Shown here one piece after another: positions 1 to 30,148 of a DNA stretch of 37,949 nt. Below the pieces are notes generated by a model. It was not told where the DNA came from. It did no database searches and was given only the letters and a program-made list of their open reading frames with translations. The stretch's first letter is position 1; the number at the start of each line of letters is the position of its first letter. The DNA comes from Gluconacetobacter tumulicola (GTDB lineage: Bacteria > Pseudomonadota > Alphaproteobacteria > Acetobacterales > Acetobacteraceae), in the NCBI RefSeq assembly GCF_014174215.1, contig NZ_JABEQL010000035.1:1-37949 (forward strand), written 5' to 3'. The position numbers and the translations under genes were made by a program.

Positions 1-906
1 CAAACACCCCAGAAGGGCCAAAGAAACTAGCAGGTCATCCCCACCAGGTCAAGAACCTCAGCCCCGGCGGTGAAGAGCGATCTACACCCCACCCCTAACA
101 CCGTCAACAGCCGACTTTCATCCGAGGGCATAAAAAATTCACCCCTGCGCCTCCCAGGCCGCCGCAAGGCGCAGGAAACCGGGTTTTTTCCCGATTCAAA
201 AAAATCACGTGGATGACTCAGAACTCCCCGGATACGCCCACCCGTGATTCGCCCCGCCGCCTTTATCCGCAACATTCTGCGGTCGGCACGCGACTCATAG
301 CTGAAGAAAACAGCGAATCAGGCGATCAGCGGCGCCACCGTCGCCTCCCGGCTGTCGGTCCATGACCGATCATGGAGACTGCCCCATCGGATCCAACCCT
401 ACGAGAGGACCGCGCTCCGGCATCTTTTGGGCCGACGTCCCGTCGGTACCCTCATGACAAGGGCAGGCAGCCAGACGGGATGGCCCACATTGAGATCGGC
501 AGCATCAACGCCACCATGATCCCAATCCGCCGGATTGCAGAAGGGGACGGTCACGCCAGTTTCAGAAGCAACACGACCGCACACCGAACCTGGATCCGCC
601 AAGCCCGAGGCCAGGATGCCATGCATAAGAGGCACAAGGCCTGATCGTCGCATGCAGCAGCATGCTCAGCATACCGTCCTTCGTCGTAGCTCAAGGGCAA
701 CCCATTGCAGACGGACCACCAATCCCGCCAAAACCTATAGCGGCAGCACATGAGGCTGATCGCAGATCGTTACCAGCCCCAACACCATCGGAATTTTCGG
801 CTCTACGCGCTACTGAACCGTATCCTCCGCTGGGAACGGAGCGACATCCATCGCTCTACTCACCGCTTCGGACGAAGGCCTGCCGCAGCGCAGCGATTCG
901 ACGCAT
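1..906. other. Intergenic stretch without a supportable gene
   Basis: Several short open frames of 60-90 codons exist on both strands here, but they overlap each other. None has a recognisable domain, a convincing ribosome binding site or the codon regularity of the neighbouring genes. The stretch at 166-210 contains GGCGCAGGAAACC followed by T-rich sequence. This faintly resembles the end of the palindromic element core seen at 5788-5846, so part of the region may be decayed repeat. A decayed mobile element is possible but I cannot name one. Confidence 0.5.
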
Positions 907-970
907 GCCTCCCAACATCGGCGCGGCGCGGAGCGGCCCGATCGACCGCAGCCCCCGAAGCGCAGGAAAC
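907..970. repeat. Diverged core of the palindromic 3'-end element
   Basis: This segment aligns with the 59-bp core at 5788-5846 and 11593-11651. It shares CATCGG, then GCGGAGCGGCC, then CCGAAGCGCAGGAAAC at its end. It differs by an insertion of about 5 bp (extra GCGCG) and by substitutions in the GGCC hairpin. I could not find outer inverted arms. Its right end is 41 bp before the stop codon of the minus-strand DUF192 gene, in the same orientation as the other copies have to their neighbouring gene. Confidence 0.6.
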
Positions 971-1011
971 ACCCACCGAATCGCCGGCAGAACAGCCGTG
1001 TCAGCTGTCTC

Positions 1012-1524
1012 TCAGCCTGCCGGGGCCGTGAGCGTCTTGCTGTCCACCTTGTCACCAACGACGATGCCCAGCTTTTCGGTCAAGCCGCCCTGCAATTCCA
1101 GCGTTGCGCGCACTGGCCCATGGCTGCTGATCCGCGCCAGGCTCTGCGGCACGGCATTCTCGGCAATCGCCGAAATCCGCCCATCCTCGCCGATGAAGAC
1201 GATATCCAACGAGACCAGCGTATTCTCCATCCACATGTCGCTCTGCTGCGGATAGGGCCAGACGAACAGCATGCCGCGATCGGCCGGCACCGAGGTACGG
1301 AACATCTCGCCGATGCGCTGCTGGCCCGGGGTGGTGGCCAGTTCGACGGAGAAGACGTGCTTCGCCCCCTTCGCGTTCGTGATGGTCAGGTTTTCGCGCG
1401 GCAGTTCGGACTGCGCCTTGGTCGGGGTGTCATCCTGGGCCCGGGCCGTTCCGACCATCTGCCCTCCGGCCAGCGCCACGACCAGACCGCACGCAGCGGC
1501 ACACATGCGCATATCCCACATCAT
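1012..1524 (-). CDS. DUF192 family secreted protein
   Basis: A 170-aa protein with an N-terminal signal peptide: a hydrophobic stretch at residues 11-28 and a likely cleavage after TARA. The rest matches the DUF192 family over almost its whole length, with ATTPGQQRIGEMFRT, DRGMLFVWPY, MWMENTLVSLDIVFI and the typical C-terminal LELQGG segment. DUF192 proteins are small periplasmic or secreted beta-barrel-like proteins whose biochemical role is not settled. The start has a purine-rich AGAAGAGAG upstream. It lies 29 bp downstream of the metallo-hydrolase gene on the same strand and is probably co-transcribed with it. A diverged copy of the palindromic repeat lies just after its stop. Confidence 0.85.
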   Translation of the reverse strand: MMWDMRMCAAACGLVVALAGGQMVGTARAQDDTPTKAQSELPRENLTITNAKGAKHVFSVELATTPGQQRIGEMFRTSVPADRGMLFVWPYPQQSDMWMENTLVSLDIVFIGEDGRISAIAENAVPQSLARISSHGPVRATLELQGGLTEKLGIVVGDKVDSKTLTAPAG

Positions 1525-4915: not shown

Positions 4916-5668
4916 ATGCGGGCAGGTGGTTTGGGACGTGCGTTCCTCTTTTCTGTAGCAGCGGCGTCCTTGGGCCTCGTCTTCTCCTCCAACGCAGATG
5001 CCCGCCAGTCGGTTCATCGCGCCACGCATATCACCCATGCCAATCATACGGCCTACACCGCGCATCATGGACGCCACGTCGCGTTCCGCACCGGCAGGCA
5101 TCATGAAGCAGGCCGGGTCATCCAGTGCGTGGCCTTCGCCAAGTCGGCATCCGACGTCATGCTGCGCGGAAACGCCGCCAACTGGTGGTACAACGCCGCC
5201 GGCGTCTACGCCCGCGGTGCCGCGCCCGAAGCCGGCAGCATCCTGAATTTCCGCGCCAACCGCCGCATGCCGCTGGGTCATGTCGCGGTCGTCCGCCAGA
5301 TCGTCGACAGCCGCACCATCGTGATCGACCAGTCGCATTGGGCCCAGCGCGGCATCAGCCGCAACGTGGCGGTGATCGACGTCTCGCCCAACAATGACTG
5401 GACGGCGGTTCGCGTCGCGCTGAACCAGAACGGCGCCTATGGCAGCATCTATCCGACCTACGGGTTCATCTATTCCCGCCCGGACAGCAGCGGCCGCATC
5501 ATGACCGCCAGCAGCGAGCGCTCGATCCCGCAGCCCCTCAACAGCGCACCGAGCGACCTGCGCCACCCGATGCGGACGACCGAAGTGGCCGAAGCGCCCG
5601 AGAGCCTGCCGAGCGTCACCTACGGCCACGCCTTCCGCGAAGACGCCCCGAACCGTTCCATTCGTTAA
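4916..5668 (+). CDS. Secreted CHAP-domain protein (putative cell-wall amidase/peptidase)
   Basis: About 250 aa with an N-terminal signal peptide (MRAGGLGRAFLFSVAAASLG, ending near SNADA), then a His-rich linker and a CHAP domain. The probable catalytic cysteine is in QCVAFAK (near residue 71) and the histidine in MPLGHVAVV (near 122). The IDQSHW segment follows, as in CHAP cysteine amidases of peptidoglycan. The last 60 residues look disordered. The start at 4916 has GAGG upstream and gives a normal signal peptide; in-frame starts at 4895 (GTG) and 4901 (ATG) are alternatives. It stands alone, convergent with rlmH, with an AT-rich upstream region that suggests its own promoter. Confidence 0.8.
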   Translation: MRAGGLGRAFLFSVAAASLGLVFSSNADARQSVHRATHITHANHTAYTAHHGRHVAFRTGRHHEAGRVIQCVAFAKSASDVMLRGNAANWWYNAAGVYARGAAPEAGSILNFRANRRMPLGHVAVVRQIVDSRTIVIDQSHWAQRGISRNVAVIDVSPNNDWTAVRVALNQNGAYGSIYPTYGFIYSRPDSSGRIMTASSERSIPQPLNSAPSDLRHPMRTTEVAEAPESLPSVTYGHAFREDAPNRSIR

Positions 5669-5723
5669 GAACCTGATCGAAACACTGATGGATCACCGCC
5701 GCCGCGCATAACATTCGGGCTCC

Positions 5724-5889
5724 AAAAGCCTGCTTGGAAATGTGGGCTGGTGAGCGAGAGTGCCGCAAAGCGGCACGCCCGTCGTGTGTTTCCGAGCATC
5801 GGAGCGGAGCGGCCTCAATGGCCGTGAGCACCGAAGCACAGGAAACGCGCGTCGGATCGCCACCAGCCCGCATTTACAAGCAGGCTTTT
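5724..5889. repeat. Palindromic 3'-end element, copy A
   Basis: A 166-bp element. Its outer arms 5724-5750 and 5863-5889 are inverted repeats of 27 bp with 25 matches. Inside are a perfect 7-bp hairpin GTGCCGC-AAA-GCGGCAC at 5760-5776, then 11 nt, then the 59-bp core 5788-5846. The core runs from GTTTCCGAGCATCGG to GCACAGGAAAC with an internal CGGCC/GGCCG hairpin. It fills the gap between the convergent CHAP and rlmH genes, and its right arm ends on the first base of the rlmH stop triplet (plus-strand TCA). It could act as a bidirectional transcript end. Confidence 0.8.
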
Positions 5890-6347
5890 CAGGGGCGTCC
5901 GGCGCGGTGGTAGGGATGGCCTGACGCAATCGCCCGCGCGCGGTAAAGCTGCTCGGCCAGCAAGCCCCGCACCAGCATATGCGGCCACGTCATGGGCCCC
6001 AGCGACAATGTATCGTCGGCACGCGCCAGCACCGGCCCATCCAGCCCTTCCGCTCCCCCGATCAGGAAACAGACCGGCCGCGACAGGCCCAGCCAGCGCT
6101 CGACATGCCGGGCAAAATCCAGGCTGGCATGCGCCCGCCCGCCTTCGTCCATTGCAATGACGAAGGCCCGGTCAGGCAGGGCGGAGAGCAGAGCCTGCCC
6201 TTCGCGCCGCTTGATTTCCGCGGCAGCCCCCCTGCCCTCGGCGACCTCGACCATGTCCAGCTTCGGCGTCAGCCGTTCGGCATAACGCTGGAACAGGTCG
6301 CGTTCCACACGGTCCTTCATGCGCCCGACAGCGATCAGCCGCATCAT
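5889..6347 (-). CDS. rlmH: 23S rRNA (pseudouridine-1915 N3)-methyltransferase RlmH
   Basis: A 152-aa SPOUT methyltransferase. It begins [20 protein letters not shown]. It shows [14 protein letters not shown], the SAM-binding knot segment [10 protein letters not shown] and the family C-terminus [20 protein letters not shown]. RlmH methylates pseudouridine 1915 in helix 69 of 23S rRNA on the assembled ribosome. The start at 6347 (or the adjacent ATG at 6344) fits the family length; the upstream in-frame start at 6410 would run into the rsfS coding end. It lies 11 bp after rsfS, a common neighbour in bacteria. Its stop codon touches the arm of palindromic element A. Confidence 0.93.
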
Positions 6348-6358
6348 CGGACCGCGTC

Positions 6359-6961
6359 CTATTCGGCCTCCGGGGCCCCGCCGGGCGGCACGTCGAGATC
6401 GGCCCCCCACATGCGCTCCAGACCGTACTGGGCCCGCGCGTCGGTCTTGAACAGGTGCACGACAATGTCCCCGGCATCGATCAGCACCCAGTCGGACCCA
6501 TTCGCGCCCTCGATCAGCACCCGCTTCAGCCCCGCTTCACCCAGCTTGCGCTCCAGATGCGTCGCCATCGCCGAAATCTGGCGGTCGGCAATGCCGGTCG
6601 CGATCACCATCCGGTCGGCGAACGACGCACGCCCCGTCAGGTCCAGCACCACGATATCCTCGCCCTTGTCGTCGGCCAGGCTCTCGGTGATGACCGTCAG
6701 ATATTTTTCGAGCTTGCTGATTTCCGCCGGTTCGCGGTTCACCGCCTTGCCGGGGCCGGCAACGGCCGCCTTCTTGCGCGGCGTGCCCGGCGCCCGTGCG
6801 GCACCGGGTACCGCGGCCAATCCGGCCGGAGTCTTTCTGCCGGTCGTGCCGGCTGTCTTCTTGGGTGCCGTGCGACGAGTGGTACCCGTATCGGCCGGAG
6901 GCTTCCTGGCGATGACTCTTACTCCTGCTTCATCCTGTGCGGGATCACCTTGCCGCGCCAT
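6359..6961 (-). other. rsfS: Ribosomal silencing factor region (possible separate rsfS reading from internal ATG)
   Basis: This is the RsfS half of the NadD-RsfS frame. If translated alone from the in-frame ATG at 6961 ([13 protein letters not shown]), it gives a 200-aa protein. That is long for RsfS (usually 105-150 aa), because about 80 low-complexity residues precede the domain. A weak GAAGAG lies 4 nt before this ATG. The domain itself is complete. It is followed 11 bp later by rlmH, the usual partner. Confidence 0.6.
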
Positions 6962-7567
6962 CGCGCTCTTCAACGCGCCGGCACGCAATTCCGTTGCTGA
7001 TATACCGATCTGCGGGGCAGGAAGAAAGGCCCAGGCACACGGCGCGCAATCGGCCAGGATCGGCGCCTCCCGCGCCGGCCGCCGCCAGCGGCCGAGCGCC
7101 AGCGCCGCCCGCCCCCGCAAAGCCGCCGGATTGTAAGAGGGCCGGGGCAGCACCGCGAACGGAACCATCGAGACGATACGCCGCCAGCACCGCCAGCGGG
7201 GCAATTCCGCCAGCCCATCCGCCCCCATCAGCCAGACGAATTCCACATTGGGAAAACGCCTGACCAGCAAAGCCAGCGTGTCGACCGTATAGCGGGTTCC
7301 AAGATGCCGCTCGATATCGGTGGCGATGATGCGCCGCCCATCGACCTGTGCCGCTACCGCCGCCAGCCTGGCCGCAAGCGGCGCCATGCCCTTTGCAGGT
7401 TTCAGCGGATTGCCCGGCGAGACCATCAGCCAGACCTGATCGAGCCGCAACAGCCGCAACGCCCGCCGCGCCAGTTGCAGATGGCCGACATGCACCGGAT
7501 TGAACGATCCCCCCAGGAGACCGACCCGGATGCGCCGCCCGTCTCCCCACACCGGAAGCGCTGTCAT
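6359..7567 (-). CDS. nadD: Nicotinate-nucleotide adenylyltransferase continuous with ribosomal silencing factor (NadD-RsfS)
   Basis: A single 402-aa frame with no stop. Residues 1-205 or so are NadD, which makes nicotinate adenine dinucleotide in NAD synthesis. They carry [20 protein letters not shown], the nucleotidyltransferase GGSFxPxHxGH signature, then [18 protein letters not shown] and the terminal ISATELR. A linker of about 75 residues rich in Lys, Pro, Ala and Thr follows. Then comes RsfS (about 280-395), with [48 protein letters not shown] and YGLERMW. RsfS blocks subunit joining on L14. The ATG at 7567 is 2 bp after the proA stop. Whether the cell makes one fusion protein, or RsfS separately from the internal ATG at 6961, cannot be decided here. 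Confidence 0.85.
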
Positions 7568-7569
7568 GG

Positions 7570-8850
7570 TCAGGGACGAAGCTGGCCCGTCCCGATGACT
7601 TCGTAGCGAAAGGTCGTCAACTGCTCCAGCCCGACCGGACCACGCGCATGGATGCGCCCGGTCGCGATGCCGATTTCCGCCCCGAATCCGAACTCCCCGC
7701 CATCGCAGAACTGGGTCGAGGCATTCCACATCACCACCGCGCTGTCGGTGCCGTTCAGGAACCGCGCCGCAACCGCCGCATCCTCGGTCACGATCGCCTC
7801 GGTATGCGCACTGCCGAACCGCGCGATATGCGCCAGCGCATCGTCCACCCCATCGACCACCGCGATCGACAGGATCGCATCCAGCCATTCGGTACCGAAA
7901 TCGGCCTCACTGGCCGCCGGCAGATCGGGCAGAATCGCCCGCGCCCGCGCATCCGCCCTGAAGGCACATCCCTTGGCCGCCAGATCCGCAACAATGCCCG
8001 GCAACAGCGCCGGCGCCACCGCAGCATCGATCAGCAGCGTCTCGGTCGCGCCGCAAATCCCCGTCCGACGCATCTTGGCATTGACCACCAACGCCCGCGC
8101 CATCTCCGGATCGGCGGCTTCATGGACATAGGTGTGGCACAGCCCCTCGGCATGCGCGAGCACCGGCACCCGCGCCTCGCGCTGCACGCGCTCGACCAGC
8201 GACTTGCCGCCACGCGGAATGATCAGGTCGATCTGCCCGGCCGCCCCCAGCATATCCGCCACATGGCGCCGGTCGGTATCGGGCGCGATCTGCACCGCCG
8301 CCTCCGGCAGGCCGGCGGCACGCAGGCCGGCCGCCATCGCCCCATGGATGGCCCGCGCGCTATGCAGGCTCTCCGACCCGCCGCGCAGGATCACCGCATT
8401 GCCCGACTTGATGCACAGGCCCGCCGCATCGGCACCGACATTGGGGCGACTTTCATAGATCATGCCAATCACGCCCACCGGCGTGGCCACCCGGCTGATG
8501 CGCAGCCCATTGGGCCGAGTCCACTCCGCCAGCACCCGCCCGACCGGATCAGGCAGCTGCGCGATATCTTCCAGCCCCGCCGCCATCGCCTCCACCCGCG
8601 CCGGGGTCAGGGTCAGCCGATCACGGAACGCGGCGGTCGCGGTAGATGCGGCAAGATCAAGCGCATTCGCCGCCAGGATCTCGTCCTGCCGCTCCCGCAG
8701 GGCAGCCGCCGCATGGCGCAGGGCGGCGTTGCGCGTCTCGGACGAACTCTGCGCCAGAACCCGGGCGGCGGCACGGGCCCGCGCGGCCAGCTCCGGCATG
8801 GCCGGGGCCCACTGGCCCTCTGCTTCCATGACGGACGTGACTGCGTTCAT
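7570..8850 (-). CDS. proA: Glutamate-5-semialdehyde dehydrogenase (gamma-glutamyl phosphate reductase)
   Basis: A 426-aa ProA, second enzyme of proline synthesis. It reduces gamma-glutamyl phosphate with NADPH to glutamate semialdehyde. It has the aldehyde-dehydrogenase fold with [40 protein letters not shown] and the catalytic cysteine in [18 protein letters not shown] is replaced by the equivalent [16 protein letters not shown], and [10 protein letters not shown] and [14 protein letters not shown] close the protein. GGGAGG lies 6 nt before the ATG. proB is not adjacent in the window. proC for the last step lies at 19363. It leads the proA-nadD/rsfS-rlmH block with almost no spacing to nadD. 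Confidence 0.96.
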
Positions 8851-8938
8851 AGCCGGCCTCCCTGCCTCGATAACGGCTCATTTTCGAACCGCACGCCCGG
8901 CATGGGCAAGGGAGAAAAAAGCCGGGCGATCATTTCCC

Positions 8939-9017
8939 GTTCTTTTTTGCAAAAAAGAACCAAAAAACGCTGATTCGTTCAGGAGCCTTGCGCTTGCACC
9001 GTAGGAGGCTCCTGAAC
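8939..9017. repeat. Perfect 22-bp palindrome and 12-bp stem hairpin upstream of proA
   Basis: Positions 8939-8960 are a perfect palindrome (GTTCTTTTTTG and its complement). Positions 8977-8988 (GTTCAGGAGCCT) pair exactly with 9006-9017 (AGGCTCCTGAAC) around a 17-nt loop, with an A run following on the plus strand. Read on the minus strand, the stem is followed by T-rich sequence. It lies between ychF and proA and probably helps end the ychF transcript. Confidence 0.55.
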
Positions 9018-9034
9018 GGAAAAAAGTCTTTTTG

Positions 9035-9058
9035 CTTCTTTTTCTTCAGAAAAAGAAG
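9035..9058 (-). terminator. Hairpin terminator candidate after ychF
   Basis: CTTCTTTTTC at 9035-9044 pairs with GAAAAAGAAG at 9049-9058 around a TTCA loop, 9 bp past the ychF stop. On the minus strand it is followed by AAAAAGACTTTTTTCC, which supplies a T tract. The stem is AT-rich and so weak, but the neighbouring 12-bp GC-richer stem at 8977-9017 backs it up. Confidence 0.5.
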
Positions 9059-9067
9059 AAGGGCCTC

Positions 9068-10162
9068 TTACACGTTGAAGCGGAACAGCAGGACATCCCC
9101 ATCCTGCACCACATAATCACGGCCTTCGATCCGCAGCTTGCCTGCTTCCTTGGCCCCGGCCTCGCCCTGATACCGGACATAATCCTCATAGGCGACGGTC
9201 TCGCAGGCAATGAAGCCCCGCTCGAAATCGTTATGAATCACGGCGGCGGCCTGCGGCGCGCGGGTGCCGGCCGTAATCGTCCAGGCGCGGGTTTCCTTCG
9301 GCCCGACCGTGAAATAGGTTCGCAGCCCCAGCAGCCCGTACCCGGCGGCAATCACGCGATCCAGCCCGCTATCGGTCAGGCCCAGCCCTTCGAGGAACTC
9401 CTTGCGGTCCTCGGCCCCCAACTGGCTGACTTCCGCCTCGATCGCCGCCGAAACGACAACAGCGGCTGCCCCTTCAGCCTCCGCGCGGGCCTGCACCTTC
9501 TTCGAGAACGCATTGCCGGTGGCCGCCGAAGCCTCCTCGACATTGCACACATACAGGACCGGCTTGCTGGTCATCAGCTGCAGGCGGCGCACGGCCTCCT
9601 CCTGCCCGGCCGGGATCGCCTTGCGCGCCGGCTGCCCCTCGCGCAGGGCCGCAATCAGCGGCTCCATCAGCGCGACCTGAGCGGCGGCCTCGCGATCATT
9701 GCCCTTGGCCTTCTTCTGCAGGGCAACGATCCGCTTTTCCAGCGACTCCAGGTCGGCCAGCATCAGCTCGGTCTCGATAATCTCCGCATCACGGATCGGA
9801 TCGACCCCGCCTTCGACATGCGTGATGTCGTCATCCTCGAAACAGCGCAGCACATGGATGATCGCATCGACCTCGCGGATATTGGCCAGGAACTGGTTGC
9901 CCAGCCCCTCCCCGCGCGAGGCGCCGCGCACCAGGCCCGCGATATCGACGAACTCCAGGCTGGTCGGCAGGATCTTCTGCGACTTGCCGATCGCCGCCAG
10001 CGCCGACAGGCGTGGGTCAGGCACCGCCACCCGGCCGACATTCGGCTCGATGGTGCAGAACGGATAATTCGCGGCCTGGGCCGAAGCCGTCTCGGTCAGG
10101 GCGTTGAACAGGGTCGACTTGCCGACATTCGGCAGGCCCACGATACCGCAATTGAACCCCAT
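9068..10162 (-). CDS. ychF: Redox-regulated ATPase YchF
   Basis: A 364-aa Obg-family P-loop NTPase. The P-loop is GLPNVGKST (residues 8-16). Switch sequences are NYPFCTIEPNVGRVAVPD and FVDIAGLVRGASRGEGLGNQFL. The NxxE motif YVCNVEEAS stands where GTPases have NKxD, which is why YchF prefers ATP. A coiled-coil insertion lies at about 130-170. The TGS-like C-terminus is LRTYFTVGPKETRAWTI...GFIACETVAYEDY...GRDYVVQDGDVLLFRFNV. YchF associates with ribosomes and responds to oxidative stress. Its ATG overlaps the pth stop by one base (TGATG), indicating coupled translation. Confidence 0.96.
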   Translation of the reverse strand: MGFNCGIVGLPNVGKSTLFNALTETASAQAANYPFCTIEPNVGRVAVPDPRLSALAAIGKSQKILPTSLEFVDIAGLVRGASRGEGLGNQFLANIREVDAIIHVLRCFEDDDITHVEGGVDPIRDAEIIETELMLADLESLEKRIVALQKKAKGNDREAAAQVALMEPLIAALREGQPARKAIPAGQEEAVRRLQLMTSKPVLYVCNVEEASAATGNAFSKKVQARAEAEGAAAVVVSAAIEAEVSQLGAEDRKEFLEGLGLTDSGLDRVIAAGYGLLGLRTYFTVGPKETRAWTITAGTRAPQAAAVIHNDFERGFIACETVAYEDYVRYQGEAGAKEAGKLRIEGRDYVVQDGDVLLFRFNV

Positions 10163-10740
10163 CAGCCCTTCTCCCCGGCCAGCATGGCCATTTTGGTCAT
10201 GAACAGTTCGGGCTTCCCGTCCGCAAGGACCGGCGCCGTGTCGGACAGGCCGTCGAGCATCGGCTCCAGCCAGTCCTGATCGCTTTTCGAGAAATCGCCC
10301 AGCACATGGCCCGTCACACGCTCCCGCGCGCCGGGGTGCCCGATGCCGAGGCGTACCCGCCAGTAATCCTGGCTGCCCAGCATCCTGTCCATCGACCGCA
10401 GGCCGTTATGGCCCGCCGCCCCACCGCCCCGCTTCACCCGCACCCGACCGGGCGCCAGGTCCAGCTCGTCATGGAAGGCAGTGATGGACTCGACCGGTAT
10501 CTTGTAGAAGGCAGCCGCCTGCTGAACGCTTTCACCCGAAAGGTTCATATAGGTCATGGGCTTGAGCAGCAGCACCTTGTGCATGCCCACCCGCCCCTCG
10601 GCCACCTCGCCGCGAAAGCGTTTCCGCCATGGCGTGAAGCCATGGCGGGACGCGATGCGGTCGACGGCCATGAAACCGACATTGTGCCGATGCCGGCTCA
10701 TTCCCGGCTCAGGATTACCGAGCCCGGTCCAGAGCAGCAT
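10162..10740 (-). CDS. pth: Peptidyl-tRNA hydrolase
   Basis: A 192-aa Pth. It cleaves the ester bond of peptidyl-tRNAs released from stalled ribosomes. Catalytic elements are visible: WTGLGNPEPGMSRHRHNVGF with the essential Asn and His, MTYMNLSGE, AFHDELDL with the catalytic Asp, and RGGGAAGHNGLRSM for tRNA contact. AGGAA precedes the ATG. It lies 34 bp after rplY and overlaps ychF by one base. The rplY-pth-ychF order is a frequent arrangement in proteobacteria. Confidence 0.95.
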   Translation of the reverse strand: MLLWTGLGNPEPGMSRHRHNVGFMAVDRIASRHGFTPWRKRFRGEVAEGRVGMHKVLLLKPMTYMNLSGESVQQAAAFYKIPVESITAFHDELDLAPGRVRVKRGGGAAGHNGLRSMDRMLGSQDYWRVRLGIGHPGARERVTGHVLGDFSKSDQDWLEPMLDGLSDTAPVLADGKPELFMTKMAMLAGEKG

Positions 10741-10774
10741 TACGCGTTCCTGTCGTCTGGCCGTCTGGCCGTTC

Positions 10775-11416
10775 TTACTTCTTCGCCGCGCCCTTGCCCG
10801 GAGCCGCCTTGGCCGGGGCCGCCGCTGCTTCCGCAGGAGCCGTGTCGTCGACGCTCGGCGCCGCGACGGTGGCGATGACGAAGTTCGGGATCTGCAGAAG
10901 CGGCGTCACATCCGCGGTGCCCTGCAGATCGTCCCAGCGCACGTTGTCGTGGATGTCGAGCTGCGACAGATCGACCGTGAACGAGGACGGAATGTTCGCC
11001 GGATCGACGCTGACTTCCACGCTGTGGCGGACGATGTTCAGCACGCCGCCGCGCTTGATGCCGGGGGACTTGTCTTCACCGGTGAAGATGATGCGCACTT
11101 CGACATGCACGTGCTCGCCGGCGGCCAGACGCTGGAAGTCGACATGGACCGGCTGGTCGGTCACCGGGTGAAGCTGGACTTCACGCATCAGCGCGGTGGA
11201 CGACACACCGTCGACGGTGATGTCGTACACGCGCGAACGCCAGCCGCCCTTGTGCATCTCGCGCAGCACCAGACGCGGGTCCAGCGCGATCAGCGTCGGT
11301 TCCTGCTTCGCACCATAGACAACGGCCGGCACCTGACCGGCACGCCTCGTCGCGCGCGCTGCCCCCTTACCAGCCTTCGCGCGCGAAGAAGCCTCGAGTT
11401 TCGTAAATTGGGTCAC
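10775..11416 (-). CDS. rplY: 50S ribosomal protein L25 (CTC form)
   Basis: A 213-aa long form of L25, which binds 5S rRNA. The N-terminal L25 domain has [29 protein letters not shown] and the RNA-binding loop. The C-terminal TL5/CTC beta domain (about 95-185) has [32 protein letters not shown]. An Ala/Lys/Pro tail ([17 protein letters not shown]) ends the protein. Translation starts at a GTG with AGGAG 7 nt upstream (MTQFTKLE). It is the first gene of rplY-pth-ychF. Its upstream region ends at palindromic element B. Confidence 0.94.
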
Positions 11417-11529
11417 TGTAATGCTCCTGAAAACCTGTTCACGCAGGCCTCCAGGGGTGCCCGCGCGTGGGGGCGTTTAACGGAAAAGCCCGGCCGAGGC
11501 AAATATTTCGGCACCAACCGACGCTCTCG

Positions 11530-11692
11530 GAGGCTGTTTCAAAAGCTTCGATGGTGAGTGGAAGCGTGGCGCCCGCCACGCGTCTGGCGGTGGTTTCCGA
11601 GCATCGGAGCGGAGCGGCCTTGATGGCCGAGAGCACCGAAGCGCAGGAAACCGCCGTCAGGCCGCCGCCAGCGGGGTTTTTGAAACAGCCTC
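11530..11692. repeat. Palindromic 3'-end element, copy B
   Basis: A 163-bp element with outer arms GAGGCTGTTTCAAAA (11530-11544) and its exact complement (11678-11692). A perfect 7-bp hairpin GCGTGGC-GCCC-GCCACGC lies at 11564-11581. An 11-nt spacer and the 59-bp core 11593-11651 follow. Flanking CTGGCGG (11584-11590) and CCGCCAG (11665-11671) also pair. The core matches copy A at 55 of 59 positions, while arms and side hairpin differ in sequence but keep pairing. The right arm ends directly against the stop triplet (11693-11695) of the histidine phosphatase gene. Confidence 0.8.
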
Positions 11693-12289
11693 TCAGCCCA
11701 TCACGTCCAGGCTCCACACCGCGGCGCCATCCGCCGGCGGCTGAACCCACAGCGGCGTGGCATTGGGCAGGCGCACATTGGCCGGCAGGCCCATCGCCGA
11801 CCGCAGGGCCCGGAACATCGCCCCGTGGCAGACGATCAGCACCGTCCCCTCGCCATCCAGCGCGCGGTTCACGGCCGCCACCGCCCGGGCCCGCAGCTCG
11901 GCGAACGGTTCGGCGCCCTTCGGCGTATACTCTCCGGCAATCCAGCTATCGTACCAGTCGCCCATGGGCTGACCTTCCTGATCGCCGAAGCAGACTTCCT
12001 GGAGCCCGTCATCCACCGCAACCGGCACGGCTTCCGCCCCAGGCCCGGCCATCGCCCGCGCCACGATCTGCGCCGTACGCAGGGCACGGCTGAGCGGCGA
12101 GGACACGATCCGCGCAACCGGCGCATACGCGGCCTCGTCCCGGGCCAGCAGCGCACCCGCCGCCTCGGCCTGGGCGATTCCGCGCGCGTTCAGGGGAATA
12201 TCGGACCGCCCCTGAGAGCGCCCCTCGGCGTTCCAGTCCGTCTCGCCATGACGCAGATACCAGTAAGGCCGGGCGATCATCCGGGTCAT
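11693..12289 (-). CDS. Histidine phosphatase family protein
   Basis: A 198-aa phosphoglycerate-mutase-like protein. The phospho-acceptor motif YLRHGETDWN lies near residue 14, followed by GRSDIPLNARGIAQA and SSPLSRALRTAQIVA, and the second histidine is in VLIVCHGAMFRALR. These are the core catalytic residues of the family. It is too short and generic for cofactor-dependent phosphoglycerate mutase of glycolysis and more likely a small phosphatase (CobC or GpmB type). No cobalamin genes are near. It lies between prs and palindromic element B on the minus strand, 79 bp after prs. Confidence 0.85.
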   Translation of the reverse strand: MTRMIARPYWYLRHGETDWNAEGRSQGRSDIPLNARGIAQAEAAGALLARDEAAYAPVARIVSSPLSRALRTAQIVARAMAGPGAEAVPVAVDDGLQEVCFGDQEGQPMGDWYDSWIAGEYTPKGAEPFAELRARAVAAVNRALDGEGTVLIVCHGAMFRALRSAMGLPANVRLPNATPLWVQPPADGAAVWSLDVMG

Positions 12290-21025: not shown

Positions 21026-21100
21026 TGGGGCGTAGCCAAGCGGTAAGGCAGCGGATTTTGATTCCGCCATGCGGAGGTTCGAATCCTCCCGCCCCAGCCA
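21026..21100 (+). tRNA. tRNA-Gln(TTG)
   Basis: A 75-nt tRNA with encoded CCA. The acceptor stem TGGGGCG pairs with CGCCCCA. The D arm contains AGCCAAGCGGTAAGGC, the anticodon stem is GCGGA/TCCGC with loop TTTTGAT giving anticodon TTG, and the T arm GGAGG-TTCGAAT-CCTCC is intact. It follows the COQ9-like gene with no separate promoter that I could identify. Confidence 0.97.
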
Positions 21101-27201: not shown

Positions 27202-30036
27202 ATGGATGCAGACGATTGGCTCCCCATGGCCCACACGCTGCCGGACGCGCCCGGATTGCTGGGATGCGACGCGCTCGATCCCTATTTCGTGACGCCGCCG
27301 GACCTGGACCCCGATCCCGCCATCAATATGGTGCTGCCGTTCCTGGCCTGGATAGTCACCCTCGCCCGCCCCCACGGCATCGGCCTGGCCCCCGGCCGCC
27401 CCGCCCTGCACGCGCTCCTGACGGAACAGGCCCACCGCCTGCGCCTGAATCTGACCGTCCACGCCATGACCGACCGTCCATGTCCCGGCACCTGCGACCT
27501 GCTGTGGGTGGCGTTGCCGCCGGCGGATATCGGCGACCAGACACCGGATCGGCTCGTCCCGCTCCTGTCACCGCACGGTGCGTTGCTGCTGTACGGGCTG
27601 GATGGCGCAACCGACCGGCATGCCGCATGGTCCCGCTGGCTGGCCGAAATCCCGCGCGCCACAATGCCGCTGGGTCGCGGGCTGACATTAGCATTGCCCG
27701 GGCCGGGCGCACCGCTCGCGGGCCTTTGCGACGCCCTGAACCGCGCGCAGGGGGATAGCGTGGCCGCCAACCTGGCCAGCCGCTTCGCCGCCATCGGCAC
27801 CCATTGGGCAACCCGGCGCGCCCTGGCCGATGCGCGGGCGGAACTGGCCGAGACCCGCGCCTCCCTCAGCCGCACCCGGCTGGACGCCATGGAATTGCGG
27901 CTCGAACGGAACCGGCACGCACCGCCCGCCGATCCGCCGGCCTCCCCTCCTCCCGACAGTCCAACACCAACCATCTCCGCGTCACCACCCACGCCCACGC
28001 CCACACTCGCCCTGCGGGCCCGGCTGGCCCGGCGGCTGGCACGCCCGCAGCCCATCCCGGCGGAAACACCGCCTCCCGAACCAGCACCCGCCCGCCGGCC
28101 CATCCGCACGGTCCTGTTCATCTCGGGCGAACCGGCGACACCCGGCACGATCTACCGTGTCGACCGCAACGCAGCCGCCTGCCGCGCAGCCGGGTACGAG
28201 GCAAGAAGCCGCGACTGCGCCGCCGTCGGCCCCGACGACATTCTCTGGGCCGACCTGATCGTCCTGTGGCGCGTGGACTATAGCGGCCATGTCGATACGC
28301 TGATCCGGCTGGCGCGCGCGCGCGGCGCCCTGCTGGCCTTCGACGCCGACGATATCGTGTTCGAACCCGAACTGGCCCGCGGCGACCTGATCGACGGCAT
28401 CCGCACCAGCCCTGCCCCCGTGGCGCGGATCGAACGCATGTATGCCGACATGCAGCGGACCCTCCGCCAGTGCGATCTCGCCATCGCCACCACCGAAACC
28501 CTGGGCGACCGGATGCGCCCCTACACGCCCCTGACGGTGATCGTGCCCAACATCCACGACCAGGGCACGCTGGCGCGGTCGCGCCGGGCCGCCCGCCGCC
28601 GCGCGGCCACCCCATCCGACGGGCTGGTGCGGATCGGCTACGCCACCGGATCGCGTACCCACCAGCGCGATTTCGCCCGCGCCCTGCCGGGGCTGCTGGC
28701 GGTCATGGCCCGGCGGCCGGAGGTGCGGCTGGTCCTGTTCCGCGAACCGGGGGGCGGCCGCCCGCTGCTGCTGACCGAGGAATTCCCCGCCCTGCACGCC
28801 CGCGCATCGCAGATCGAATGGCGCGACATGGTCGCGCTGGACGCCCTGCCCGACGAACTGGCGCGGCTGGACATCTCGATCGCTCCGCTGGAGACCGGCA
28901 ATCCGTTCTGCGAAGCCAAGAGCGAACTGAAATTCTTCGAGGCCGCCCTGGCCGGGACCTGCACCATCGCCTCCCCGACCGCCCCCTTCCGGGCGGCGAT
29001 CCGCGATGGCGTCACCGGCCTGCAGGCCGACAGCGACGCGGAATGGGAAGAGGCACTGCTCCGGCTGGTGGACGATCCACCCCTGCGCGCCCGCATGGCG
29101 CGCGACGCGCTGCATACGGTCCTGTGGGAATACGGCCCCCAGCGCCAGGCCACCCTGCTGGGCCTGACGATCGCGGGCCTGGCAGGCGGCCAGGCCGCCG
29201 CGCAGGCCGGCGCGCTGGCGCTGGCATGCGGCGCCACCCGCGTGCGCGCCGTGCCCACCATCCCCGACAGCGAGACATTGCTGCACCAGGACCAGTTGCA
29301 GGATGCCGCCGTCACAATCGTCATCACCACGTACCAATATGCCGATCATGTCATCGAGGCCCTGGAATCGGTCCGCCACCAGACGCTCGAACCGCTGGAC
29401 CTGATCGTGGTGGACGATGCCTCGACCGACGATACGACGGCCCTGGTCAGCGGCTGGATGGCCCGGCACGGCAGGCGCTTCAACCGCCTGCTGCTGCTGC
29501 GCGCGCGCCACAATGCCGGGCTGGGCGGCGCCCGCAATATCGGCATGGCCGCCGCCGAAACCCCGTATGTCATGCAGCTCGATGCCGACAACCGCCTGCT
29601 GCCCGACGCGTGCGCCCGCCTGCTGGATACCATCCGGCAGGCGGATGCGGGCTTCGCCTATCCCATCATTCGCCGCTTCGGCCGGGCGGACGGCGTGATG
29701 GGCGATATCCCCTGGCATCCGGGGCGCCTGGTCGGCGGCAATGTCGTCGATGCCATGGCCATGGTGGCAAAATGGGCGTGGGCGGCGGCCGGCGGCTATT
29801 ACGTGTCCCGCGACGCCATGGGGTGGGAGGATTACGATCTCTGGTGCAGCCTGGCCGAACGGGGCATCGCCGGGGCGCATGTGCCCGAAATCCTGGCCGA
29901 ATACCGCGTCCACGACGCCGCCATGACCGACGGCGTGACCGAACGCGCGGCCCACAAGCAACGCGTGGTCGCCCTGCTGCGTGCCCGCCATCCCTGGATA
30001 CGCCTGACCGCGCCGGAGGCGAGAAGCCGGGCCTGA
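27202..30036 (+). CDS. Multidomain glycosyltransferase (methyltransferase-like, GT4-type and GT2 domains)
   Basis: A 944-aa protein. Residues 40-175 resemble a class I SAM methyltransferase in layout but lack an E/D-x-G-x-G motif. A coiled coil at 205-240 and a Pro/Thr-rich linker (240-300) follow. A GT4-like module (301-655) has TIYRVDRNAAACRAAGYEA, FDADDIVFE, YATGSRTHQRDF and FCEAKSELKFFEAALAG. A GT2 domain (703-930) has VTIVITTYQYADHVIEALES, VVDDASTDDT, MQLDADNRLLPD (DxD) and GWEDYDLW. Two active transferase modules would let it add successive sugars; substrates are unknown. It is divergent from the RTX gene. A decayed palindromic arm lies 80 bp after its stop. Confidence 0.85.
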   Translation: MDADDWLPMAHTLPDAPGLLGCDALDPYFVTPPDLDPDPAINMVLPFLAWIVTLARPHGIGLAPGRPALHALLTEQAHRLRLNLTVHAMTDRPCPGTCDLLWVALPPADIGDQTPDRLVPLLSPHGALLLYGLDGATDRHAAWSRWLAEIPRATMPLGRGLTLALPGPGAPLAGLCDALNRAQGDSVAANLASRFAAIGTHWATRRALADARAELAETRASLSRTRLDAMELRLERNRHAPPADPPASPPPDSPTPTISASPPTPTPTLALRARLARRLARPQPIPAETPPPEPAPARRPIRTVLFISGEPATPGTIYRVDRNAAACRAAGYEARSRDCAAVGPDDILWADLIVLWRVDYSGHVDTLIRLARARGALLAFDADDIVFEPELARGDLIDGIRTSPAPVARIERMYADMQRTLRQCDLAIATTETLGDRMRPYTPLTVIVPNIHDQGTLARSRRAARRRAATPSDGLVRIGYATGSRTHQRDFARALPGLLAVMARRPEVRLVLFREPGGGRPLLLTEEFPALHARASQIEWRDMVALDALPDELARLDISIAPLETGNPFCEAKSELKFFEAALAGTCTIASPTAPFRAAIRDGVTGLQADSDAEWEEALLRLVDDPPLRARMARDALHTVLWEYGPQRQATLLGLTIAGLAGGQAAAQAGALALACGATRVRAVPTIPDSETLLHQDQLQDAAVTIVITTYQYADHVIEALESVRHQTLEPLDLIVVDDASTDDTTALVSGWMARHGRRFNRLLLLRARHNAGLGGARNIGMAAAETPYVMQLDADNRLLPDACARLLDTIRQADAGFAYPIIRRFGRADGVMGDIPWHPGRLVGGNVVDAMAMVAKWAWAAAGGYYVSRDAMGWEDYDLWCSLAERGIAGAHVPEILAEYRVHDAAMTDGVTERAAHKQRVVALLRARHPWIRLTAPEARSRA

Positions 30037-30115: not shown

Positions 30116-30148
30116 CTCTCGCCCGCCAGCCCACATTTCCAGGCTCTC
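30116..30148. repeat. Solo arm of the palindromic 3'-end element
   Basis: CTCTCGCCCGCCAGCCCACA followed by TTTCC (30116-30140) matches the reverse complement of the inner left arm of copy A (5736-5760) at 23 of 25 positions. The match resumes at AGGCT after a 4-bp gap. No core or partner arm was clearly found between it and the upstream stop at 30036. Relative to that gene the orientation is the same as in the other copies. Confidence 0.5.

What the first reader, a model, noticed from the sequence alone, without database searches (positions are those of the whole stretch)
5724..11692. A family of palindromic elements placed directly at gene 3' ends
Seen: elements at 5724-5889 and 11530-11692 share a 59-bp core with 55 identities. 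A diverged core lies at 907-970 and a solo arm at 30116-30148. In both complete copies the right arm touches the stop triplet of a minus-strand gene (rlmH; histidine phosphatase). The diverged copy is 41 bp from the DUF192 stop, and the solo arm is 80 bp from the 944-aa gene stop in the matching orientation. Inference: these are transcribed as structured 3' ends and may stop transcription, protect mRNA or bind a protein. A non-autonomous mobile element with a preference for gene ends would also fit.
Basis: partly seen in the sequence, partly recalled or inferred. Interest (0 to 1): 0.75.

Follow-up and report, generated by a model that had tools for sequence, protein, structure and literature searches.

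The report
Jumping hairpin element at stop codons
The two hairpin-like repeats are copies of a small mobile DNA element of vinegar-type bacteria that often sits right behind the stop codon of a gene, nearly always in the same direction there, and whose folded shape is kept by matched mutations in its two arms.

Summary
In detail: two ~163-bp palindromic elements touching TGA stops, a decayed copy and a solo arm. They belong to a family of about 93 core copies in this Gluconacetobacter genome, found in 14 of 14 genus genomes; the core occurs in 25 of 102 sampled Acetobacteraceae genera. It is mobile DNA: at the histidine-phosphatase stop a ~97%-identical relative has the empty site, and the difference is exactly 163 bp plus a 3-bp TGA duplication. 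Ends and target (TCTNAGA) match IS5-family elements of the genus. So it is a MITE, and the stop contact follows at least partly from its target. Two things are unusual. At stops it sits almost only in one orientation (40 to 1 in this genome). A three-way-junction fold is also conserved, by paired changes even between orthologous copies, and it pairs best on the strand antisense to the upstream gene. Whether copies are steered to stops or kept there is open: the test depends on how strictly the target is written. No T-run terminator was found. Function is inferred. New variant of a known kind.

The parts
5725..5888 (-). Complete element 1, type A arms; R orientation = minus strand, same sense as rlmH. 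Outermost paired bases 5724-5889
   Evidence: orthologous copies at the rlmH stop in named Gluconacetobacter species
5747..5866 (+). Three-way-junction fold of element 1 on the better-pairing (F) strand
   Evidence: model R1, 141.2 bits on + against 29.5 on -, (this copy is in the model's alignment)
5788..5846 (+). 59-bp conserved core, element 1
5889..5891 (-). TGA stop of rlmH, left target copy
11530..11692 (-). Complete element 2, 163 bp, type B arms (GAGGCTGTTTCAAAA)
   Evidence: empty site in G003
11551..11671 (+). Three-way-junction fold of element 2 on the F strand
   Evidence: 120.5 bits on + against 31.5 on -, (this copy is in the model's alignment)
11593..11651 (+). 59-bp conserved core, element 2
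11693..11695 (-). TGA stop of the histidine phosphatase = left copy of the 3-bp target duplication
11527..11529 (-). Right copy of the target duplication, decayed to CGA
880..1011 (-). Decayed copy directly behind the DUF192 stop (1012-1014)
   Evidence: 880-990, E 0.04
30116..30148 (+). Solo right arm, same orientation to the 944-aa gene ending at 30036
   Evidence: read by eye, no model hit
11693..12289 (-).
1012..1524 (-).

Best explanation
The elements are a non-autonomous transposable element (MITE) family of IS5 type. Shown: terminal inverted repeats, 3-bp mostly TNA duplications in a TCTNAGA target, an exact empty site, many copies, and IS5-family elements in the genus with the same kind of ends and duplications. 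A TGA stop preceded by C already supplies four bases of that target, and insertion there leaves the gene intact, as at the phosphatase. Shown: copies at stops are almost all in one orientation; copies as a whole exceed the target expectation at stops; paired substitutions keep the arms and the three-way-junction core folded after insertion. Inferred: IS5 transposases act in trans; copies behind stops in that orientation are preferentially kept because the folded element is harmless or useful there. The most likely use, in my view, is a structural boundary at the gene end acting through the F-strand fold (blocking RNA made towards the gene, or binding a protein). Arm pairing may be kept partly by template switching.
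For: Empty site: own and G005 have 233 bp between the stop and a shared sequence, G003 has 67, difference 166 = 163 + 3. Identical flanking triplets at 24 of 108 sites, 11.8 +- 2.5 by shuffling, 0 of 5000 as high. Target logo TCTNAGA from those 24. At 6 of 35 IS5-type transposase loci, elements of 883-930 bp with ends like GAGCCCGATCCGAAAG or GAGACTGTTTGGAAA and TNA duplications; two of their transposases tested, both IS5 family. A 76-bp remnant in the own genome is 91% identical to the end of one of them. Own genome: 40 copies stop-adjacent in R orientation, 1 in F, 38 elsewhere; 41 of 79 against 0.297 of CTNAG sites, p = 3e-5. Outer arms in 43 orthologous comparisons: 60 Watson-Crick double changes against 10.6 expected. 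Core: 25 of 45 pairs with a change on both sides, 97.6% of cells paired, 0 of 500 shuffles. F strand better folded in 79 of 80 copies. Other genera: 19 of 34 matches stop-adjacent in R, 2 in F.
Against: No transposition and no transcript was observed. None of the 7 IS5-type transposase places of the own genome showed these ends (two of them lie 144 bases from a contig end). The six IS copies carry TTA, TCA or TAA, none TGA. Of 108 sites 42 are neither at a stop nor read into. The claim that copies are kept at stops, rather than steered there, depends on the target: copies with an intact duplication lie at stops in 6 of 17 cases, which equals expectation for CTNAG (0.297, p = 0.39) but exceeds it for YTNAR (0.125, p = 0.014) and for CTNA or TNAG (0.165, p = 0.048). 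Outer-arm single changes show no strand bias (GU on R 18, on F 17), and half of the outer double changes are transversions (30 of 60), which fits template switching as well as selection. The 79 of 80 folding result counts related copies. No RNA is known from the F strand.
Confidence: 0.72

Rival explanations
1. Fixed host 3'-end signals (intrinsic terminators or mRNA-stabilising hairpins) inherited with each gene, not mobile.
For: Precise position behind stops, strong folding, one orientation.
Against: Exact empty site with target duplication; no T-run; 42 of 108 sites elsewhere; copy numbers differ between relatives (93, 119 and 64 core matches).
Confidence: 0.08
2. Arm and core pairing are kept only by a mutation mechanism (template switching between palindrome arms), with no selection; the element is a plain selfish MITE.
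For: Half of outer double changes are transversions (30 of 60); no strand bias in outer singles; the mechanism is proposed for RNA hairpins (PMC8794818, abstract and opening seen).
Against: Internal-loop mismatches of the consensus are mostly kept rather than corrected, with many invariant purines there; GU exceeds AC on the F strand 98 to 11 cells in the 30-sequence core alignment; inner single changes favour F 25 to 11 (p = 0.03); the core is conserved across genera while the arms differ.
Confidence: 0.3
3. Transposition itself is steered to stop codons or transcribed gene ends.
For: Stop adjacency in other genera with other arms and with TGA, TAA and TAG stops (19 of 34 matches in R, 2 in F); intact-duplication copies exceed expectation at stops for the looser targets YTNAR and CTNA/TNAG (p = 0.014 and 0.048).
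Against: For the strict target CTNAG the same copies lie at stops as expected (6 of 17 against 0.297, p = 0.39).
Confidence: 0.17
4. REP-type repeats moved by a RAYT (Y1 tyrosine transposase), in single-stranded form.
For: Hairpin, strand asymmetry, tandem arrays, mostly extragenic position.
Against: No Y1_Tnp match in 14 of 14 genus genomes, with the control positive in 5 of 14 well-known genomes; a 3-bp duplication is made, while IS200/IS605 elements are said to make no larger ones (PMC2817692, passages); far longer than the 20-40 bp of REPs (PMC3733652, abstract start in a listing).
Confidence: 0.03

Closest known systems
Bacterial MITEs (RUP of pneumococcus, Correia/NEMIS)
   Same: Short, inverted-repeat ends like those of a resident IS family, target duplication, high copy number (PMC2229807 and PMC10969869, passages)
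   Different: 3-bp TNA duplication and IS5-type ends instead of TA; GC-rich rather than A+T-rich; strongly structured core conserved across genera; stop-codon and orientation bias; paired arm evolution at single loci
ERIC/IRU elements
   Same: Short intergenic repeats transcribed with neighbouring genes; an orientation-dependent effect on the upstream mRNA is reported (PMC2229807, passages)
   Different: No sequence comparison made here; ERIC length and TA target are recalled; fold and core not compared
IS5 family, IS1031-type insertion sequences
   Same: Ends of the GAGNCYGNNNNGRAA kind and 3-bp TNA duplications; three-nucleotide insertion sites are named as an IS1031-group feature (PMC2516522, passage)
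   Different: Those encode a transposase; this element is too short to and carries its own conserved core. The subgroup IS1031 was not tested, only IS5 family
REP/BIME
   Same: Extragenic hairpins, occasional tandem arrays
   Different: No Y1 gene in the genus, target duplication present, much longer

Membership tests
MITE | Terminal inverted repeats | tested here: met
   80 of 93 own copies have paired arms with score 12 or more
MITE | Target-site duplication on insertion | tested here: met
MITE | Ends shared with an IS family of the host group | tested here: met
   6 of 35 loci, all six in other genomes of the genus; IS5 family for the 2 transposases tested; 76-bp remnant in the own genome
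MITE | Mobility (empty sites) | tested here: met
   phosphatase site only: present in 2 of 14 genus genomes, absent in 12
MITE | Transposition by the IS5 transposase in trans | not testable with these tools
   needs an assay
REP/RAYT | Y1 tyrosine transposase in the genome | tested here: not met
   0 of 14
Intrinsic terminator | GC hairpin followed by a T-run | tested here: not met
   none of the 9 sites found lies in either element; tested for the two window copies only
Known Rfam family | Match at the gathering score | tested here: not met
   whole window; 5600-6000, four weak hits far below gathering
Integron attC | Core-site boxes and integron integrase | not tested
   considered from memory only
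ERIC/IRU | ERIC consensus and TA duplication | not tested
   no ERIC sequence compared

The most novel reading that the evidence does not exclude
A strand-specific, three-way-junction nucleic-acid fold that acts at gene ends across Acetobacteraceae is spread by borrowing the ends of IS elements, and is then domesticated behind stop codons in one orientation: transposition as a supplier of ready-made 3' boundary elements whose functional strand is antisense to the gene.
Probability: 0.3. Interest if true: 0.82.

Novelty: new variant of a known kind. Interest (0 to 1): 0.6.

Why it matters
It is an abundant mobile element family of acetic acid bacteria, not described in the papers that my searches reached, that touches stop codons without harming the gene, and a natural case where paired mutations accumulate within single orthologous insertions. 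That makes the old question whether compensatory change in hairpins comes from selection or from template switching directly testable. If the orientation bias reflects function, it shows how a selfish element becomes a gene-end signal.

Tried and rejected
Intrinsic terminator: no T-run in the two window copies. Known RNA families: none. REP/RAYT: no Y1 gene in 14 genomes. Stop codons made by the insertion: at the phosphatase site the stop is the natural one, though 9 of 108 sites look like read-in, with a stop inside the arm. Stop-directed insertion: undecided, see the three target definitions. First IS-end searches assumed one strand or a fixed start and were replaced. The decayed IS5 end was first read by eye and then checked. 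First ortholog comparison was polluted by tandem arrays that joined unrelated copies; only pairs with a left flank at least 85% identical were kept (43 comparisons used, 179 dropped for flank, 14 for length; the same site can appear in up to three of the 43). The same pollution may affect the 108-site clustering, so own-genome counts are given beside it. In one search the 2-base line of the duplication test is meaningless and is not used.

Parts used: 13 of 93 own cores without arms at score 12 were dropped; 39 of 203 elements with arm score below 14. Of G003's 119 core matches I fetched 38 stretches (54 elements read), of G006's 64 I fetched 42 stretches (56 elements read), chosen from the places that one search listed, not at random. 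One search used the 31 best-ranked loci of 15 genomes and 34 of 35 model matches; the weak match overlapping the L396 hit on the other strand was left out, and its stop window (-16 to +8) is wider than the +-3 used for Gluconacetobacter. Genes are from a home-made finder trained on 194 long ORFs of these same regions.

Literature: no description of this family was found in searches, which cover open PMC papers only.

Full report
OBSERVATION. The two elements, their 59-bp core (55 identities; best of 200 shuffles 34), the decayed copy and the solo arm are present. Both complete elements fold far better than shuffled sequence (z -10.0 and -6.9). The window is a whole contig (C35) of a 4.29-Mb genome in 90 contigs. 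The nearest named relatives by rlmH are Gluconacetobacter aggeris (98%) and G. asukensis (97%), so I take the genus to be Gluconacetobacter.

FAMILY. Searches with either element give dozens of copies, with a cap on how many are scored. A core pattern with up to 3 mismatches gives 93 places in the own genome against 1 for the reversed pattern, 119 in G003 and 64 in G006. Among 100 genomes the element is found in 14 of 14 of the genus, 8 of 46 further genomes of the family and 0 of 40 of other families of the class, at E up to 1e-5. A covariance model of the core finds it in 37 of 200 family genomes, 25 of 102 genera (strict filters, so a lower bound). Arms fall into several types that share the core. 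In other genera the arms differ from these but mostly still pair.

MOBILITY. At the phosphatase stop the own genome and G005 carry the element and the 12 other genus genomes do not. G003, 96.8% identical to the window over 3.2 kb at rlmH, keeps the same stop TGA and the same downstream sequence. The spacing is 233 against 67 bp, a difference of 166 = 163 + a 3-bp duplication; the right copy has decayed to CGA. This is the one empty site that I examined base by base; at rlmH some named species lack the element but are too diverged for an exact comparison. In the own genome identical triplets flank 15 of 80 elements against 7.7 expected, 3 of 2000 shuffles as high. Over 108 sites from three genomes the count is 24 against 11.8 (0 of 5000). 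The target of those 24 reads TCTNAGA. Of 35 loci with an IS5-type transposase domain, 6, all in other genomes of the genus, show elements of 883-930 bp with ends such as GAGACTGTTTGGAAA or GAGCCCGATCCGAAAG and TTA, TCA or TAA duplications. The two transposases tested are IS5 family. The own genome holds a remnant, 76 bp at 91% identity, of the end of one such element, with end GAGCCTGTTTGG. No Y1 transposase was found in the genus. This is a MITE of IS5 type.

GENE ENDS AND ORIENTATION. I orient each copy so that its core reads GTTTCCTG...CGGAAAC and call that strand R and the other F. Of 80 own copies with arms, 63 have the left gene in the same sense, and in 42 of these the stop lies within 3 bases of the element boundary (33 TGA, 5 TAG, 4 TAA). 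With a stricter arm cut the own genome has 40 stop-adjacent in R, 1 in F and 38 elsewhere; the fetched parts of G003 25, 1 and 17; of G006 25, 1 and 16 (some sites are shared). The motif explains part of this: of element-free CTNAG sites outside coding DNA in the fetched stretches, 27 of 91 are stops (0.297). All own elements exceed this (41 of 79, p = 3e-5). Those with an intact duplication do not (6 of 17, p = 0.39), but they do if the target is written more loosely: YTNAR 0.125, p = 0.014; CTNA or TNAG 0.165, p = 0.048. So it stays open how much is target, steering or retention. At sites away from stops TGA exceeds TCA on the R strand 15 to 5 at the left end and 10 to 5 at the right (p = 0.04 for the first), a mild insertion preference that does not by itself give 40 to 1 (P of at most 1 in 41 at 0.2 is 0.001). 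In other genera 19 of 34 matches are stop-adjacent in R and 2 in F, 13 elsewhere, with TGA, TAA and TAG stops and a wider window. The decayed copy at DUF192 also begins at the stop.

STRUCTURE. The core forms a three-way junction: 45 pairs, 25 with a change on both sides, 97.6% of cells paired, 0 of 500 shuffles as good, and slid controls at 30-49%. The structure was derived from the same 30 sequences. Many internal-loop purines are invariant. The F strand is favoured: mean folding energy -117.3 against -99.7 kcal/mol, F better in 79 of 80 copies (copies are related, so these are few independent facts), and GU exceeds AC on F 98 to 11 cells, in 16 against 10 columns. Between orthologous insertions (43 comparisons of own, G003 and G006) the outer 17 pairs show 60 Watson-Crick to Watson-Crick double changes against 10.6 expected if independent; the inner pairs show 18 against 3.7; 27 of 43 comparisons have at least one. 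At rlmH the outer arm differs in matched fashion among named species (AAAG/CTTT, AAAT/ATTT, GAAT/ATTC). Half of the outer double changes are transversions (30 of 60) and outer single changes show no strand bias, so template switching between arms (PMC8794818, abstract and opening) may contribute.

HOW IT MOST LIKELY WORKS. Shown: mobility, target, duplication, IS5-type ends, orientation and stop bias, structure kept after insertion. Inferred: IS5 transposases act in trans; copies behind stops in R orientation are selectively kept; the F-strand fold matters to the cell, perhaps by blocking RNA made towards the gene or by binding a protein. Not supported: intrinsic termination.

NOVELTY. As a mobile element it is a new member of the MITE kind. 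The combination of a junction fold conserved across genera, differing arms, one orientation behind stops and paired evolution within single loci makes it a new variant. No description was found in the searches listed, which cover open PMC papers only.

Noticed in passing
G000 C3:165384-166019 (locus L184); G000 C4:199017-199377 (L188); G011 C1:961781-962709: Tandem arrays of the element, unit spacing about 147-166 bp, with 4, 3 and 6 copies.
   Followed up: partly
L089 (G. aggeris, rlmH 3' end): The rlmH copy lacks its core but keeps arms and the small hairpin; it looks like a deletion between two GGAAA repeats.
   Followed up: no
G000 C29:8852-9000 (L226): Apparent hybrid copy: type B left half joined to a type A right half, so the outer arms match poorly; the G006 locus L084 aligns on both sides but not there.
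   Followed up: no
L097, L098, L109 (Novacetimonas, Komagataeibacter); L091, L094, L095 (other Gluconacetobacter): Where this element is absent behind rlmH, other palindromic or repetitive sequences lie close behind the stop, e.g. AAGCTTTTTACAAAAAGCTTC or CAAAGGGC...GCCCTTTGG types.
   Followed up: no
G000 C27:50612-50760 (L263): A short arm-only palindrome (GAGGCTGTTTGAAAAG...CAAACAGCCTC) lies inside another degraded copy, like a nested insertion.
   Followed up: no
window 21026-21097: One tRNA gene, the only Rfam match in the window at the gathering score.
   Followed up: no
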